A stretch of DNA of 52,012 nucleotides from NCBI GenBank assembly GCA_021734525.1, contig JAIPIW010000004.1, forward strand, positions 1-52,012, written 5' to 3'. Of this stretch, positions 23,218 through 28,805 are shown piece by piece. Every line of letters begins with the position of its first letter. Position 1 is the first letter of the stretch. The notes beneath the pieces are model-generated. The model saw nothing but the letters and a program-made list of their open reading frames with translations, ran no database searches and was not told the origin of the DNA. The position numbers and the translations under genes are program-made. The DNA is from Candidatus Altimarinota bacterium. GTDB lineage: Bacteria > Patescibacteriota > Gracilibacteria > UBA4473.

Positions 23218-25530
23218 ATGAATTTTATAAAAAAAGCTAGTGGTATTTTAGGAATAAATTCGCGCAACTTAGACTATATTGCGCGGTACAATTCTACGTC
23301 TCAAAAAAAACTGGCAGATGATAAAGTATTTACGAAACACTTTTTGGAGTCTCGGGGGATAGGAGTCGCTAAGTTATATAATGTTGTTCATAAGTATACC
23401 CAACTAACACCAGAATTCTTTAAGGCACTACCAGATGCTTTTGTGATTAAACCAAATAGGGGACTAGCGGGAGGGGGAATTATTGTTATTACCAGAAAGA
23501 AAGGAAAGTATTGGTATACCATTCAAGATAAGAGAATAGATGAAGAATTTCTGTATCGGCATTGTAGTGCTATTTTAGATGGAAAATATTCTATTTCCGG
23601 TGCTTACGACAAAGTCGTTTTCGAAGAACGTTTAGAATCACATCCAGACTTTCGGAAACTAACTGGATTTGGTTTACCAGATGTCAGGGTAATTGTCTTC
23701 AATATGGTACCAGTGTTAGCCATGCTTCGTGTTCCAACCTATGAGTCAGAAGGGAAAGCCAATATGGAATTAGGAGCAATTGGACTAGGAGTAGATATTG
23801 GTACTGGTCGAACGACCGGTGGAGCACATCATGATAACTTTGTTACCAAACTTCCCAATGGACAATCAGCTATTGGATTTAAGGTTCCTTTTTGGGATGA
23901 GATATTACTAGCTGCTTCTAAGATTCAACAGACCACTAAAGTTGGTTTCTTAGGTGCAGATTTGGGTATTTCTAAGACTGGAGTAAAGGTTTTAGAAATG
24001 AATGCTCGTTCTGGATTAAAGGTTCAGATTGCCAACCGTATTCCGCTCAAGACTAGATTAGAAAAGGTCGCAGACCTCAAGGTTCTAACCCCAGAAGATG
24101 GTGTGGAAATAGCTAAAACTCTTTTTTCCCAAACATCCAAATCCAGCAAAGCGGTGGATAATCACAGTGGAGCAAAACCAGTAGTTGGTATTACAGAATC
24201 TGTGGTTCTTAATTCAGAAAAACCACAAAATTTACTAGCTAGAATAGATCTAGCAGCCGAAACTAATATAATTAAGGATGAATTTTGTACAGGTTCTATT
24301 TTGGATGTTTCCATTCAGGGGAAAAGAGTGAAGCTTCCAGTAGAAAAGGGAGAAACTGGTGAAGTTGACTTGGTTCTAGCTGGACGATTCTTAACAGATT
24401 TCTTAATAGATCCGAACAAAAAAAGTGTTCATACAGAGTCACATGTCTTGTCTTCCCAATTAGACGAGCGGGTGATGCGTAATATTGATGAAAAACTTTG
24501 TGAGATAGATGAGCAAATAAAGCTCCTTTCTTATATTAATCCACGCAATCTAGAAGAACAGAAAGAACTGTTCTTATCTAATCCAGAATTTTCTCCCCGA
24601 TTTTCCTACCGAGAATGTGATTTGAATTTAGAACAAATGCAACGGGACTTAAAAAGAATACCAGAGGTAGATCAGGAACTATTTTCTCTTTTTACGGGGA
24701 AAATACAGGAATTAGAGAATAAGATTTCTTTGATTCAATCTGTGGGGACAGGAGATTTTCAAAAATTCTCTGAGAAAACTTTTGTTAATGTTGGACAGCA
24801 GACCTATCGTTCGGCCTTAACCTTCCTAAAAAAAGAATCTCATAACCTAAAACTAGATGAGAGTGAAGAATTAGATTTAAAGGCGTCTATAGAAGTACTG
24901 CAGGATTTTCTCAAAAAACATAAGCTGTCTTTCTGGAAGATAAAAATCTTGGAGGACGGGGTAGTGGATATCCAGGTTACTAAACACAATACTATTCTTC
25001 TTAAGAAGGGAGCAACCTTTCGTTTAAATAGACTAAAGGCACTACTAGTTCATGAAATAGGGACACATGTTTTCCGTTTTGAAAATGGAAAACTCCAACC
25101 CTTCCGTATTTTTGAAAGAGGTACAGCCGGATATTTAAGAACAGAAGAAGGATTAGCTATTTGGAACCAGAATCAGTTGGGGTTAACCTTGGGAGAAAAA
25201 TTTTTAAGACCAGCTTACCAGGTAGTAGCAATTCATTTAGCAAAACAAATGTCTTTTTGTGATTTGTTTCACTACCTAAAAAATACTTATGATTTAGAGG
25301 ATGAGTTTGTTTGGCAAATGTGTGTGCGGGCCAAAAGAGGACTGCAAGATACTACGCATAAGGGAGCTTTTACCAAGGATGCTGTTTATTTTTTAGGACA
25401 TCAGGACATCGAAAAGTTTGTAGAAGATAAAGGAAATATAGCAGACCTCTATGTCGGTAAAATTACAATAAAAGACTTAAAACTAGTTAAAAAAATCGAG
25501 AATCTAAAACCTGCTAAGTTTTTGTTGTAG
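23218..25530 (+). CDS. Three-domain fusion: RimK-like ATP-grasp ligase, retropepsin-like domain, MATCAP/DUF1704-like metallopeptidase
   Basis: The first ~300 of 770 residues are an ATP-grasp ligase resembling alpha-L-glutamate ligases (FVIKPNRGLAGGGI nucleotide loop; metal ligands in VLEMNARSG at E260 and N262). Residues ~322-405 resemble the RimK-associated retropepsin-like protease (RIDLAAETN, VLAGRFLTDFLIDP), but the catalytic DTG is changed to DLA at D344. Residues ~420-770 match the DUF1704 (QEGLA-motif) metallopeptidase family that includes the tubulin carboxypeptidase MATCAP: HEIGTH (H612, E613, H617) and TEEGLA (E644). The protein could thus ligate and remove amino acids on a peptide or protein target. 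The target is unknown. It follows the 7TM gene by 3 nt. Confidence 0.82.
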   Translation: MNFIKKASGILGINSRNLDYIARYNSTSQKKLADDKVFTKHFLESRGIGVAKLYNVVHKYTQLTPEFFKALPDAFVIKPNRGLAGGGIIVITRKKGKYWYTIQDKRIDEEFLYRHCSAILDGKYSISGAYDKVVFEERLESHPDFRKLTGFGLPDVRVIVFNMVPVLAMLRVPTYESEGKANMELGAIGLGVDIGTGRTTGGAHHDNFVTKLPNGQSAIGFKVPFWDEILLAASKIQQTTKVGFLGADLGISKTGVKVLEMNARSGLKVQIANRIPLKTRLEKVADLKVLTPEDGVEIAKTLFSQTSKSSKAVDNHSGAKPVVGITESVVLNSEKPQNLLARIDLAAETNIIKDEFCTGSILDVSIQGKRVKLPVEKGETGEVDLVLAGRFLTDFLIDPNKKSVHTESHVLSSQLDERVMRNIDEKLCEIDEQIKLLSYINPRNLEEQKELFLSNPEFSPRFSYRECDLNLEQMQRDLKRIPEVDQELFSLFTGKIQELENKISLIQSVGTGDFQKFSEKTFVNVGQQTYRSALTFLKKESHNLKLDESEELDLKASIEVLQDFLKKHKLSFWKIKILEDGVVDIQVTKHNTILLKKGATFRLNRLKALLVHEIGTHVFRFENGKLQPFRIFERGTAGYLRTEEGLAIWNQNQLGLTLGEKFLRPAYQVVAIHLAKQMSFCDLFHYLKNTYDLEDEFVWQMCVRAKRGLQDTTHKGAFTKDAVYFLGHQDIEKFVEDKGNIADLYVGKITIKDLKLVKKIENLKPAKFLL

Positions 25531-27282
25531 CTACATTTGTTCTGGAATTTCTATCCCCAAAATTCCTAGTCCTTTTTCCAGTACTTCTAATACTTTTTGG
25601 GCCAAAGCGAGACGAGCTTGTTTGAGGTCATCTGTTTCGGCATTAAGAACAGAATTTTCGGCATAGAAGCTGGACCATTCTTGCGCTAGTTCTAAGAGAT
25701 AAGTGACTAAGTAGGTAGGGTTCTTATTTTCTGCTGCTCTGTTTAATACTTCTGGAAATTCTAATACTTTAACTCCTAAAGGTTTTTCTGCTGTCCCTGG
25801 TACTCCATATCCAGCTCCAGGTTTTTCTTTCTTAAGGATCGATTTAGTTCTTACTCCGGCATATTGTAAATAAGGACCCGTGGCTCCTTCAAAGGCAAGA
25901 GATTTTTCCGGATCATAGGTAATAGTTTTTTTAGGAGTGGTGGTCAGTAGGGCGAATTTCCAAGCGGCATTCATGATTTGTTCTGCAGTAGCTTGGGATT
26001 TTTCTTTAGTAGTTTCTGGATTTCGTTTCTGGATTTCCTTTAGGGCTAAGGCAGAAAGAGTGTTCATGAGCATGTCTGCATCTACCACTGTTCCTTCTCG
26101 GGATTTCATTCGTCCGTGGGGGAGATTAACTAGTCCATAACTTAGGTGGCAAAGTTTATTTCTATCCAAAATTCCCAACTTCTCCAAACACAAGAATAGA
26201 ACCTTGAAGTGGTAATTTTGTTCATCTGCTACGGTATAGATTAATTCATCTGGATGATTAAAGTCTTGATCACGAAGTGTAGCTACAGCTAAGTCTTGGG
26301 TAAGGTACACACTAGTACCATCTGCTCGCATGATTATCTTCTCATCTAAGCCTTCGTCACTAAGATCAATGGCGATAGAGCCATCTTCTTTCTTAAAAAA
26401 CACTCCTTTACTTAGTCCTTCTTCGGCAATATCTTTCCCTTGCTGATAAGTTTCGGATTCGTAGTAGGATTTTTCAAATTTAATACCCTGTCTTTCGTAA
26501 GTTTTAGCATGTCCAGCTAAAGTCCAGCCATTCATTTTTTTCCACAATTTATGCACTTCTGTGTCTCCATCTTCCCATTTAACCAGCATCTCTTGGATTT
26601 GTTCTTTAAGGGAAGGATCTTTTTTTAATTCTTCTTCAAATTTTATGTAATAACGTCCTACAAAAAAGTCTGGACTTTCATCAGTTTGTTCTGGAGTCTC
26701 ATTATTACCCCATTTTTGGTAAGCCAGCATACTTTTACAGATGTGTACTCCTCGGTCATTGATAATATTTACCCGATGTACTTTAGCTCCTACTGCTTCT
26801 AGTAAGTTACTCATAGAAATACCTAGGGCATGATTACGCATATGTCCGAGGTGTAAGGGTTTATTAGTATTGGGACCAGAAAACTCTACGACAATATTCT
26901 TATTCTTTAGGAGGTCTGTAGAAAGGGGAGTTTTGAATACTTCATCAAAAAAAACCTCGTTTTTGAAGAACAGATTAAGGTAGGGACCGACAATTTTGGT
27001 TTTTTCTACTAAGGGGCATTTGTTTAGTAGACGATCGACTTCTTTAACCATGCTTTTGATATGCATACCTTTTTGAGACCCTCTTACTACTTTATGTATA
27101 TCTGTTTCTTCAAAAACTTTTGGTTTAGATATATTTTCTTGAGCAGATTTCAATACGGGAGAATTTTTAGATAGCTTGAAGACATTTATAGCCAAATCTC
27201 CATCTTGTCCTTTCGGGACAGGAGAAAATTGAATATTAGCATATTCTTTTCCGAGGAATTTTAGTATTAAGTCTTGCATCAT
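25531..27282 (-). CDS. argS: Arginyl-tRNA synthetase
   Basis: Class I aminoacyl-tRNA synthetase of 583 residues. It contains an N-terminal Add-1 domain, the HIGH-type HLGHMRNH after EFSGPNTNKP, the KMSKS-equivalent GRMKSREGT, and a helical C-terminal anticodon-binding domain (ATGPYLQYAGVRTKSI onward). It starts with tandem ATGs and no SD. It lies 54 nt after argG, from which it is separated by a strong terminator with little room for a promoter. It abuts the fusion gene at its 3' end without spacer. Confidence 0.95.
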   Translation of the reverse strand: MMQDLILKFLGKEYANIQFSPVPKGQDGDLAINVFKLSKNSPVLKSAQENISKPKVFEETDIHKVVRGSQKGMHIKSMVKEVDRLLNKCPLVEKTKIVGPYLNLFFKNEVFFDEVFKTPLSTDLLKNKNIVVEFSGPNTNKPLHLGHMRNHALGISMSNLLEAVGAKVHRVNIINDRGVHICKSMLAYQKWGNNETPEQTDESPDFFVGRYYIKFEEELKKDPSLKEQIQEMLVKWEDGDTEVHKLWKKMNGWTLAGHAKTYERQGIKFEKSYYESETYQQGKDIAEEGLSKGVFFKKEDGSIAIDLSDEGLDEKIIMRADGTSVYLTQDLAVATLRDQDFNHPDELIYTVADEQNYHFKVLFLCLEKLGILDRNKLCHLSYGLVNLPHGRMKSREGTVVDADMLMNTLSALALKEIQKRNPETTKEKSQATAEQIMNAAWKFALLTTTPKKTITYDPEKSLAFEGATGPYLQYAGVRTKSILKKEKPGAGYGVPGTAEKPLGVKVLEFPEVLNRAAENKNPTYLVTYLLELAQEWSSFYAENSVLNAETDDLKQARLALAQKVLEVLEKGLGILGIEIPEQM

Positions 27283-27304
27283 TAGGGAGTTTAGTGATTT
27301 TAAG

Positions 27305-27341
27305 AAAAAAGGGTAGGGGCGCTTTGTAAAGCGCCTCTACC
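27305..27341 (-). terminator. Intrinsic terminator between argG and argS
   Basis: Minus-strand stem of 14 bp with one mismatch (GGTAG and GGCGCTTT arms against AAAGCGCC and CTACC), followed by six T's (27310-27305). It overlaps the argG stop codon. argS begins only about 20 nt beyond. Confidence 0.85.
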
Positions 27342-28605
27342 AAAGTTCTTCATGTTTTTTTTGGTGTTGGAAAGAAATCTTTTGTGCCAGATTATAGATT
27401 TCTATAAATCCAGCGGAAGCATTTTGATTAAAAGTTCCATTTTTATCAAAAGTAGCTAAGTTTTTATCCAGAAGAGAATACTTAGATTCAAGAGTTATTA
27501 TCTCGATGTTTCCCTTATAAAGTTTTACTTTTACAGTTCCAGACACCTTATTGTTTTGACTTTCTATGTAATATTTTAGGTGTTGCATGATAGGATCGTA
27601 CCATTTAGCAGTATAGGTTAAATAAGCCCATTTACTATCTATGAAGTTTTTCATTTCGTTTTCTTCTATGGTGGACACAAGCTGTTCCAAATTCTTATGA
27701 GCGGCAACTAAAATACTGGCAGCTGGTTGTTCATAGACACCCCTTACTTTTAAGCCAGTTATTCTGTCTTCGATCATATGTAGAATTCCTACTCCATGAG
27801 CTGCACCAATTGTATTAAGCTCTGAGATAATATCTATCAAGGATTTATTCTTATCATTGAGAGCAATAGGGATTCCTTTATAGAACTCAATTTTTATGAC
27901 CTGATTTCGGTAGCAAGCCTTTTCGGGGACAGTGCACCATTTAAGGATCCTTTCAATAATAGGAATCTTTTCGGTTTCTTCTATTTCGGCACCCTCTGAG
28001 GTATTACCCCAGATATTCTCGTCATGGGAGTAAGGAGATTCGTCATTTTGGGTAATAGGAATATTGTTCTTTTTGGCGTATTTTATTTGCTCATTTCTGC
28101 CCATAGACCATTCTCTCACAGGAGCAATGGTTTTTAGAGTGGGATTAAGCGTGGTAATGTAGCTTTCAAATCTAACCTGATCATTTCCTTTTCCCGTGCA
28201 GCCATGGGCAATAACTGGACAGTTATGTTCTTTAGCCATTTGAACGGCAATTTTGGCAATGATTACTCTTCCCAGAGGGCAACTGAGAGCATATCCTCCC
28301 TGATAATCTGCATTGGCTTTGATAGCTAAAGAAAGCAATTCATTAGCAAATTCTTCTTTGGCGTCATAGAGGATTATTTTCGTTGCTCCAAGGTCTGTGG
28401 CCTTTTTAAGAATTTCAGCAAAGTTATTATTTTTCTTTCCAAGATCAACAGTTAGGGTAATAACCTCGCATTGGTAGTGTTCCTGAATCCATTTCAGTAG
28501 AATACTGGAATCAAGTCCGCCGGAGTAAAGAAGAATACATTTCTTGAATTCTCCTTTATGAGCTTCATGTGAAGCGATTTTTTTATAATCGGTAGTAGTT
28601 TTCAT
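27337..28605 (-). CDS. argG: Argininosuccinate synthase
   Basis: Joins citrulline and aspartate with ATP to argininosuccinate, the penultimate step of arginine synthesis. The PP-loop YSGGLDSSILL is at about residues 27-37, with HGCTGKGNDQVRFE, APVREWSMGRNEQ and YSHDENIWGNTSEG following. At 422 residues it is of normal length. No argH or other arg gene is in the window. It is preceded by an Arg-codon leader peptide and an attenuator, so its transcription should respond to arginyl-tRNA charging. argS follows. Confidence 0.95.
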   Translation of the reverse strand: MKTTTDYKKIASHEAHKGEFKKCILLYSGGLDSSILLKWIQEHYQCEVITLTVDLGKKNNNFAEILKKATDLGATKIILYDAKEEFANELLSLAIKANADYQGGYALSCPLGRVIIAKIAVQMAKEHNCPVIAHGCTGKGNDQVRFESYITTLNPTLKTIAPVREWSMGRNEQIKYAKKNNIPITQNDESPYSHDENIWGNTSEGAEIEETEKIPIIERILKWCTVPEKACYRNQVIKIEFYKGIPIALNDKNKSLIDIISELNTIGAAHGVGILHMIEDRITGLKVRGVYEQPAASILVAAHKNLEQLVSTIEENEMKNFIDSKWAYLTYTAKWYDPIMQHLKYYIESQNNKVSGTVKVKLYKGNIEIITLESKYSLLDKNLATFDKNGTFNQNASAGFIEIYNLAQKISFQHQKKHEELW

Positions 28606-28628
28606 GATTTAGAGTTTTTAGAAAATAT

Positions 28629-28649
28629 CCCGCTCAAGATTCGAGCGGG
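28629..28649 (-). promoter_or_regulatory. Second leader hairpin upstream of argG
   Basis: CCCGCTC/GAGCGGG stem of 7 bp with 7-nt loop between the attenuator and the argG ATG. Its 3' arm repeats that of the attenuator (GAGCGGG), so the two stems can exchange partners. The following run is ATATTTTC, a poor T tract, so it is more likely a structural element than a terminator. Confidence 0.6.
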
Positions 28650-28655
28650 TCGTAT

Positions 28656-28683
28656 AAAAAAATCCCGCTCGGAGTTAAGCGGG
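28656..28683 (-). terminator. Attenuator (intrinsic terminator) in the argG leader
   Basis: On the minus strand CCCGCT/AGCGGG stem (28683-28664), then ATTTTTTT. The 5' arm together with TTA just before it (TTACCCGC, 28686-28679) is complementary to GCGGGTAA at the end of the leader-peptide gene (28720-28713). This makes terminator and antiterminator mutually exclusive. Confidence 0.85.
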
Positions 28684-28712
28684 TAAGTTATTAATTTTAT
28701 GATTCAAAAGTA

Positions 28713-28772
28713 TTACCCGCGTTGCGGGCGCCGACGAAGATTAATAATTACGTTAACTTTTGAATTCATCAT
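28713..28772 (-). CDS. Arginine-codon leader peptide of the argG attenuator
   Basis: The 19-codon frame encodes MMNSKVNVIINLRRRPQRG. Four Arg codons (CGT, CGG, CGC, CGC) lie just before the stop, three of them consecutive. The last two codons plus the stop form the GCGGGTAA antiterminator arm. A ribosome waiting at the Arg codons leaves that arm free to pair with the terminator's 5' arm. A ribosome that reaches the stop covers it and lets the terminator form. A further 10-bp inverted repeat (28756-28765 with 28702-28711) can enclose the Arg region when translation fails. The logic matches classical his/trp attenuation. Confidence 0.85.
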   Translation of the reverse strand: MMNSKVNVIINLRRRPQRG

Positions 28773-28777
28773 TAGGA

Positions 28778-28805
28778 AACTTAAGCAGGGAAATTCTTTT
28801 GTCAA
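28778..28805 (-). promoter_or_regulatory. Promoter of the argG leader transcript
   Basis: Consensus -35 TTGACA (28805-28800), 16-nt spacer, weak -10 TAAGTT (28783-28778). The predicted start site falls at or within a few nt of the leader-peptide ATGs, so the leader mRNA may be leaderless. Confidence 0.6.

What the first reader, a model, noticed from the sequence alone, without database searches (positions are those of the whole stretch)
28606..28805. Arginine-codon ribosome-mediated attenuator controlling argG (and probably argS)
Seen: a consensus -35, then a 19-codon ORF (28772-28713, minus) with RRRPQR encoded by CGT CGG CGC CCG CAA CGC. GCGGGTAA at its end is exactly complementary to TTACCCGC, the 5' part of an intrinsic terminator (CCCGCT/AGCGGG plus seven T's). 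A 10-bp inverted repeat encloses the Arg codons. Known: his, trp, leu and phe operons use this logic. Inference: uncharged tRNA-Arg stalls the ribosome, frees the antiterminator arm and switches on argG-argS. I know of no described Arg-codon attenuator of this kind in Patescibacteria.
Basis: partly seen in the sequence, partly recalled or inferred. Interest (0 to 1): 0.92.

Follow-up and report, generated by a model that had tools for sequence, protein, structure and literature searches.

The report
Arginine-sensing leader-peptide switch before argG
In front of the arginine-synthesis gene argG of this tiny-genome bacterium lies a short peptide-coding RNA switch with consecutive arginine codons that very probably turns the gene on when charged arginine tRNA runs out; the same switch recurs in front of arginine genes across many related lineages, which lack the usual arginine repressor.

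Summary
The leader ORF (19 codons; CGT CGG CGC .. CGC), the terminator and a mutually exclusive antiterminator are all present. Curated leaders, 47 in all, from 15 families of the class plus one outside it, keep a short ORF with consecutive Arg codons, then an intrinsic terminator whose 5' arm pairs with the end of that ORF. Peptides, arm sequences and codon choice all differ, yet Arg and the pairing persist. Targets are argG, argF-argG, argC, an argA/argB-like gene and, in one genome, argS. The Arg repressor is absent (0 of 341 genomes over cut-off). Some lineages carry an Arg-specifier T-box before argG instead. The leader ATG usually sits at the expected transcription start (probably leaderless). 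Leader codons are mostly CGC/CGT, read by tRNA-Arg(GCG). Best explanation: classical ribosome-mediated transcription attenuation sensing charged tRNA-Arg. Control of argS in this genome is uncertain, because a strong terminator-like hairpin separates argG from argS. The mechanism is of a known kind; the arginine specificity and this phylum appear undescribed in the open-access papers searched. No experiment supports it yet.

The parts
28800..28805 (-). -35 hexamer TTGACA
   Evidence: Sequence; intact TTGACA upstream of most relatives' leaders
28778..28783 (-). Probable -10 (TAAGTT, 16-nt spacer, weak)
   Evidence: in relatives with an intact TTGACA the -10 usually ends 7-10 nt before the leader ATG
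28713..28772 (-). Leader ORF M(M)NSKVNVIINLRRRPQRG*, probably leaderless
   Evidence: conserved as a short Arg-run ORF in 47 leaders
28728..28736 (-). Arg control codons CGT CGG CGC
   Evidence: Arg runs enriched over all other residues and in the leader frame
28719..28721 (-). Fourth Arg codon CGC
28756..28765 (-). 5' arm of the 10-bp stem enclosing the Arg codons
28702..28711 (-). 3' arm of the enclosing stem
28724..28729 (-). Arm 1 (GCCCGC), pairs with arm 2 when no ribosome is present
   Evidence: P(1:2) = 0.90 without ribosome
28713..28720 (-). Arm 2 (GCGGGTAA), antiterminator 5' arm, includes the stop codon
28679..28686 (-). Arm 3 (TTACCCGC), shared by antiterminator and terminator
28664..28683 (-). 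Intrinsic terminator hairpin (arms 3:4)
28656..28662 (-). T7 tract, expected end of the attenuated transcript
28629..28649 (-). Second hairpin CCCGCTCGAATCTTGAGCGGG with a weak T tract; a similar one in the congener L002
27337..28605 (-). argG, argininosuccinate synthase (controlled gene)
   Evidence: TIGR00032 and NF001770 above cut-off
27312..27341 (-). Terminator-like hairpin between argG and argS
   Evidence: -19.5 kcal/mol, z = -4.9, followed by CTTTTTT
25531..27282 (-). argS, arginyl-tRNA synthetase; coupling to the leader uncertain
   Evidence: TIGR00456 above cut-off

Best explanation
A ribosome-mediated transcription attenuator specific for arginine. Transcription from the TTGACA promoter starts at or next to the leader ATG (inferred), and a ribosome translates the leader while RNA polymerase moves on. 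If charged tRNA-Arg is plentiful, the ribosome reaches the stop codon and covers arm 2 (GCGGGTAA). Arm 3 then pairs with arm 4, the terminator forms, and transcription stops near 28656. If tRNA-Arg, mainly the GCG isoacceptor, is uncharged, the ribosome stalls at the first or second Arg codon. Arm 2 stays free and pairs with arm 3 (antiterminator), and polymerase reads on into argG. Without translation, arm 1 pairs with arm 2 and the terminator forms by default. Shown by computation: leader, alternative structures, their conservation, Arg specificity, gene context and absence of ArgR. Inferred: start site, translation, stalling, termination and induction on starvation.
For: (1) Conservation: 47 leaders in 15 families of the class plus one outside, before argG, argF-argG, argC, an argA/argB-like gene and argS. 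(2) Arg specificity: among 69 argG upstream regions, runs of 3 or more in a short ORF before a terminator occur in 20 loci for Arg, 2 for Lys and at most 1 for any other residue. Without the terminator requirement it is 22 for Arg against 0.5 expected from shuffles. (3) Frame: Arg-Arg codon pairs fall 114/8/3 in the leader frame and the other two. (4) Antiterminator: 37 of 47 at p < 0.05, median z -3.3; arm 2 starts a median 18 nt after the first Arg codon and overlaps the stop codon. (5) Each spacer fits its own terminator arm: best of 45 in 25, top three in 36; observed mean -6.3 against a minimum of -1.5 in 5000 permutations. (6) Switch model on the window: P(terminator) 0.03 with the ribosome at Arg codon 1 or 2, and 0.99 or more at the later codons tested, at the stop codon or with no ribosome. 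Over 47 leaders the median is 0.48 stalled and 1.00 at stop; the effect vanishes when spacers are shuffled (Wilcoxon 6e-11). (7) No Arg repressor: 0 of 341 genomes over cut-off, while control genomes ring. (8) In lineages where T-boxes replace it, the T-box lies before the same gene and reads as Arg-specific (CGC, once AGA, my reading). (9) Codon tracking: two TGA-recoded genomes with almost only AGA use AGA runs.
Against: No transcript, start-site, 3'-end or expression data. The -10 of the window is weak. Equilibrium folding switches by more than 0.5 in only 23 of 47 leaders, though equilibrium ignores co-transcriptional order. Ten of 47 antiterminators are not significant alone. About 20 argG loci showed neither leader nor T-box within the stretch searched; some lie inside operons or near contig ends. 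argH was not found in this genome with PF14698, so whether it makes arginine is unclear. Related loci are not statistically independent.
Confidence: 0.9

Rival explanations
1. Nascent-peptide sensing: the RRR peptide in the exit tunnel, with free arginine or a polyamine, arrests the ribosome (as SpeFL or the fungal arginine attenuator peptide do), so the ligand is sensed rather than tRNA charging.
For: Arg-rich stalling peptides exist; a Salmonella leader ORF with two Arg codons controls speF (PMC6386406).
Against: Only the Arg run is conserved; N-terminal residues and length vary freely (14-25 aa, Arg run beginning at codon 3-19). Arrest peptides need specific residues. The geometry frees the antiterminator when the ribosome stalls at the Arg codons, which here means low, not high, arginine. 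T-boxes with Arg specifiers replace it.
Confidence: 0.05
2. The hairpins are an ordinary terminator of the upstream toxin-antitoxin-like genes or plain GC-rich palindromes; the Arg codons are a by-product of GC-rich stems.
For: A RelE-like gene lies upstream on the same strand; CGN codons are GC-rich.
Against: A consensus -35 lies between. Upstream genes differ in relatives. Arg pairs are confined to the leader frame (114/8/3) and persist as AGA runs with AT-rich stems in recoded genomes. Ala, Pro and Gly runs, which GC stems would give in other frames, are not enriched.
Confidence: 0.02
3. The element acts mainly on translation or RNA stability (like the RNase G part of speF control) rather than on intrinsic termination.
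For: Such layers exist for speF; some leaders have weak predicted switching.
Against: Almost every leader is followed by a hairpin with a T tract placed well before the gene start; the window T tract is T7.
Confidence: 0.03

Closest known systems
trp/his/leu/pheA-type ribosome-mediated attenuators
   Same: Short leader ORF with a run of cognate codons, arms 1:2, 2:3 and 3:4, intrinsic terminator before the biosynthetic gene
   Different: Arginine as the sensed residue; leader usually leaderless; found in a Patescibacteria-like class; no dedicated repressor found
Salmonella speF leader orf34 (PMC6386406)
   Same: Two consecutive Arg codons sense low arginine through ribosome position
   Different: Controls ornithine decarboxylase, through Rho, an RNase G site and RBS exposure rather than an intrinsic terminator of an Arg-synthesis gene; conserved peptide domain
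Leaderless leader ORFs: S. meliloti trpL (PMC7298713) and mycobacterial poly-Cys ORFs (Canestrari 2020, seen only as a citation in PMC13236596)
   Same: Leader ORF starts at the transcript 5' end
   Different: Trp and Cys rather than Arg
T-box leader RF00230 with Arg specifier
   Same: Senses uncharged tRNA-Arg and lies before argG in other lineages of this class and phylum
   Different: Binds tRNA directly; no leader peptide. Not present at the window locus
ArgR/AhrC repressor
   Same: Usual arginine feedback control
   Different: Protein repressor; not found in this class

Membership tests
Ribosome-mediated transcription attenuator (trp/his type) | Short translated-type leader ORF with a run of codons for the pathway's amino acid | tested here: met
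Ribosome-mediated transcription attenuator (trp/his type) | Intrinsic terminator between leader ORF and structural gene | tested here: met
Ribosome-mediated transcription attenuator (trp/his type) | Mutually exclusive antiterminator whose 5' arm is free when the ribosome is at the control codons and covered when it is at the stop codon | tested here: met
Ribosome-mediated transcription attenuator (trp/his type) | Located before genes for synthesis or charging of that amino acid | tested here: met
   argG, argF, argC, argA/argB-like, argS
Ribosome-mediated transcription attenuator (trp/his type) | Arrangement conserved with covarying arms in relatives | tested here: met
Ribosome-mediated transcription attenuator (trp/his type) | Read-through rises on starvation for the amino acid | not testable with these tools
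   Needs expression data
T-box leader | RF00230 match with specifier loop and antiterminator bulge | tested here: not met
   No match in the window; matches before argG in nine other loci
SpeFL/orf34 (DUF2618) leader | Conserved HIRRT-type peptide before speF, Rho-dependent | tested here: not met
   Different peptide (no HIRRT core), different gene, T-tract terminator present

The most novel reading that the evidence does not exclude
A whole class of Patescibacteria-like bacteria that lack ArgR controls its arginine genes chiefly by sensing the charging of one isoacceptor, tRNA-Arg(GCG), using two interchangeable RNA devices: leaderless Arg-codon attenuators (some in tandem) and Arg T-boxes, which have replaced each other at the same gene and in one genome (G260) stand side by side.
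Probability: 0.5. Interest if true: 0.75.

Novelty: new member of a known kind. Interest (0 to 1): 0.62.

Why it matters
Ribosome-mediated attenuation is documented mainly in Proteobacteria and Actinobacteria; the open-access papers searched describe no arginine-specific attenuator of arginine-synthesis genes, and nothing of this kind in Patescibacteria. If true, these reduced organisms regulate an amino-acid pathway without its repressor. Their short leaders are ready-made sensors whose codon can be read: the choice of CGC/CGT, and of AGA in recoded lineages, makes theories of selective isoacceptor charging testable by comparison. Leader and T-box exchanging at one gene within one class is also a good case for the evolution of RNA control.

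Tried and rejected
Rfam at gathering threshold: only tRNAs in the window. Genome-contig search with argG: one distant actinobacterial hit without a leader. First T-box scan at gathering threshold gave none among 20 loci; the E-value scan of nine selected loci then showed T-boxes, two above gathering. The class-wide promoter-ATG-CGN3 pattern is mostly chance hits, so only hits with a following terminator and an arg gene were kept. The automatic terminator finder chose the wrong hairpin, or none, in seven leaders; these were set by hand. A MAFFT/RNAalifold covariation test was not made because leaders are too divergent to align; cross-pairing and shuffles were used instead. Considered and rejected: terminator of upstream genes; stem composition producing Arg codons.

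Full report
Observation. The region folds well beyond shuffles (z -4.1). The weak spot is the -10 (TAAGTT, 3 of 6). The neighbours are argG (TIGR00032) and argS (TIGR00456), both above curated cut-offs.

Relatives. argG was sought in the genus, family, class and a sample of the phylum and upstream DNA was fetched. The congener has MNFKVLFTNLRRRP* in the same architecture; family members have MHLFAMVSQLRRRR*, MNIWNLVSQLRRRRL*, MSFSHLIFQLRRRGVTRV*, MKITFFVASFSRRSN* and others. In all, 47 leaders were curated, from 15 of the 34 families listed for the class and one genome outside it. A promoter-ATG-CGNCGNCGN pattern, chosen without regard to the gene downstream, found the argG leader as the only hit in this genome. 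Elsewhere it led to a GNAT-like ORF followed by argF and argG (G002), to argS through one intervening ORF (G005, two leaders in tandem; that genome had no argG hit), to argC (G330), argF (G186) and an amino-acid-kinase/acetyltransferase gene (G237; argA/argB-like, below the curated cut-offs). Most other pattern hits are chance.

Tests of the mechanism. Arg is the only residue enriched in runs: 20 of 69 loci with three or more, next Lys with 2; without the terminator requirement 22, shuffles 0.5. Arg pairs occur 114 times in the leader frame against 8 and 3 in the others, so this is coding, not stem composition. The spacer after the Arg codons pairs with the terminator's 5' arm better than shuffles in 37 of 47 (p < 0.05). 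The pairing arm begins a median 18 nt past the first Arg codon and spans the stop codon, which is where a stalled ribosome leaves it free and a terminating ribosome hides it. Real spacers prefer their own terminator arm over those of other loci far beyond permutation. With a ribosome modelled at Arg codon 1 or 2 of the window the antiterminator dominates (0.95); at Arg codon 3 or 4, at the stop codon, or without ribosome the terminator dominates (0.99 or more). The same contrast holds over the set of leaders and disappears with shuffled spacers. Equilibrium folding is a crude model of a kinetic process.

Sensor. In leaders whose promoter has an intact TTGACA, the -10 usually ends 7-10 nt before the ATG, so these leaders are probably leaderless; some leaders (for example of family f26) have a longer 5' end. 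Leader Arg codons are 76% CGC/CGT against 37% in background ORFs; in the window AGA is commonest. This genome's tRNA-Arg genes found are GCG, TCG, TCT and CCT; the assembly is about 90% complete. PMC8629427 states that Candidate Phyla Radiation bacteria read CGU and CGC with tRNA-Arg(GCG). Two TGA-recoded genomes (G101, G129), whose ORFs use almost only AGA, and a third (G053) that favours AGA, have AGA runs in their leaders. That the GCG isoacceptor is the main sensor is an inference.

Control without ArgR. PF01316 is over cut-off in 0 of 341 genomes; controls ring. In other lineages argG is preceded by T-boxes: nine of nine loci selected for T-box-like terminators match RF00230, two above gathering score. 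My reading of the specifier position is CGC in seven, AGA in one, and unread in L141, where the region is elided. G260 carries a T-box and an Arg leader in tandem.

argS. A hairpin of -19.5 kcal/mol with a T run lies between argG and argS, so joint control here is uncertain. argS also follows argG in G017 and lies nearby in G003.

Known systems. All sequence-level criteria of classical attenuators tested here are met; function is untested. The nearest arginine precedent is the Salmonella speF leader (PMC6386406). A comparative study of Actinobacteria reports no RNA element before arginine operons (PMC1262725). Exchange of leader peptides and T-boxes at one gene is known for hisS (PMC2965389). 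Ten literature searches of open-access papers found no arginine attenuator of arginine-synthesis genes; subscription papers were not searchable. The organism's name is not given by the tools; recoded TGA in some families of the class fits the GTDB class Gracilibacteria, as an inference.

Noticed in passing
L063, L064, L067-L070, L129, L141, L148: T-box leaders (RF00230) before argG in other lineages; specifier reads CGC in seven and AGA in one. Two reach the gathering score.
   Followed up: yes
L063 (G260) 300-785: A T-box followed by an Arg-codon leader (MHNLFSRRNRRRRKKPQKFR) before the same argG.
   Followed up: partly
L182, L184, L185 (family f16): Val-rich leader ORFs (e.g. MQSVRVVVSLVLVAVPRIGA) with terminators before small ORFs of unknown family: possibly branched-chain attenuators.
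   Followed up: partly
L096 (G005), L042 (G313), L037 (G312), L051 (G053): Tandem Arg leaders, two in a row before one gene.
   Followed up: partly
window 27295-27345, minus: Strong terminator-like palindrome between argG and argS.
   Followed up: yes
window 28629-28649, minus: Second hairpin after the attenuator with arms like those of the first, also in the congener; it could pair with the first terminator's 3' arm.
   Followed up: no
own genome: No argH found with PF14698 in this genome; hits in four relatives, mostly below cut-off, suggest a divergent argH in the family.
   Followed up: partly
window 23218-25530, plus: Fusion of a sugar-transfer ATP-grasp domain (PF14397) and a MATCAP-type carboxypeptidase domain (PF08014).
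   Followed up: no
Leaders of family f26 and relatives (e.g. L039, L050, L052, L053): A second Arg cluster (KFRR, ELRR, YRRR) at the very end of the leader, of unknown role.
   Followed up: no
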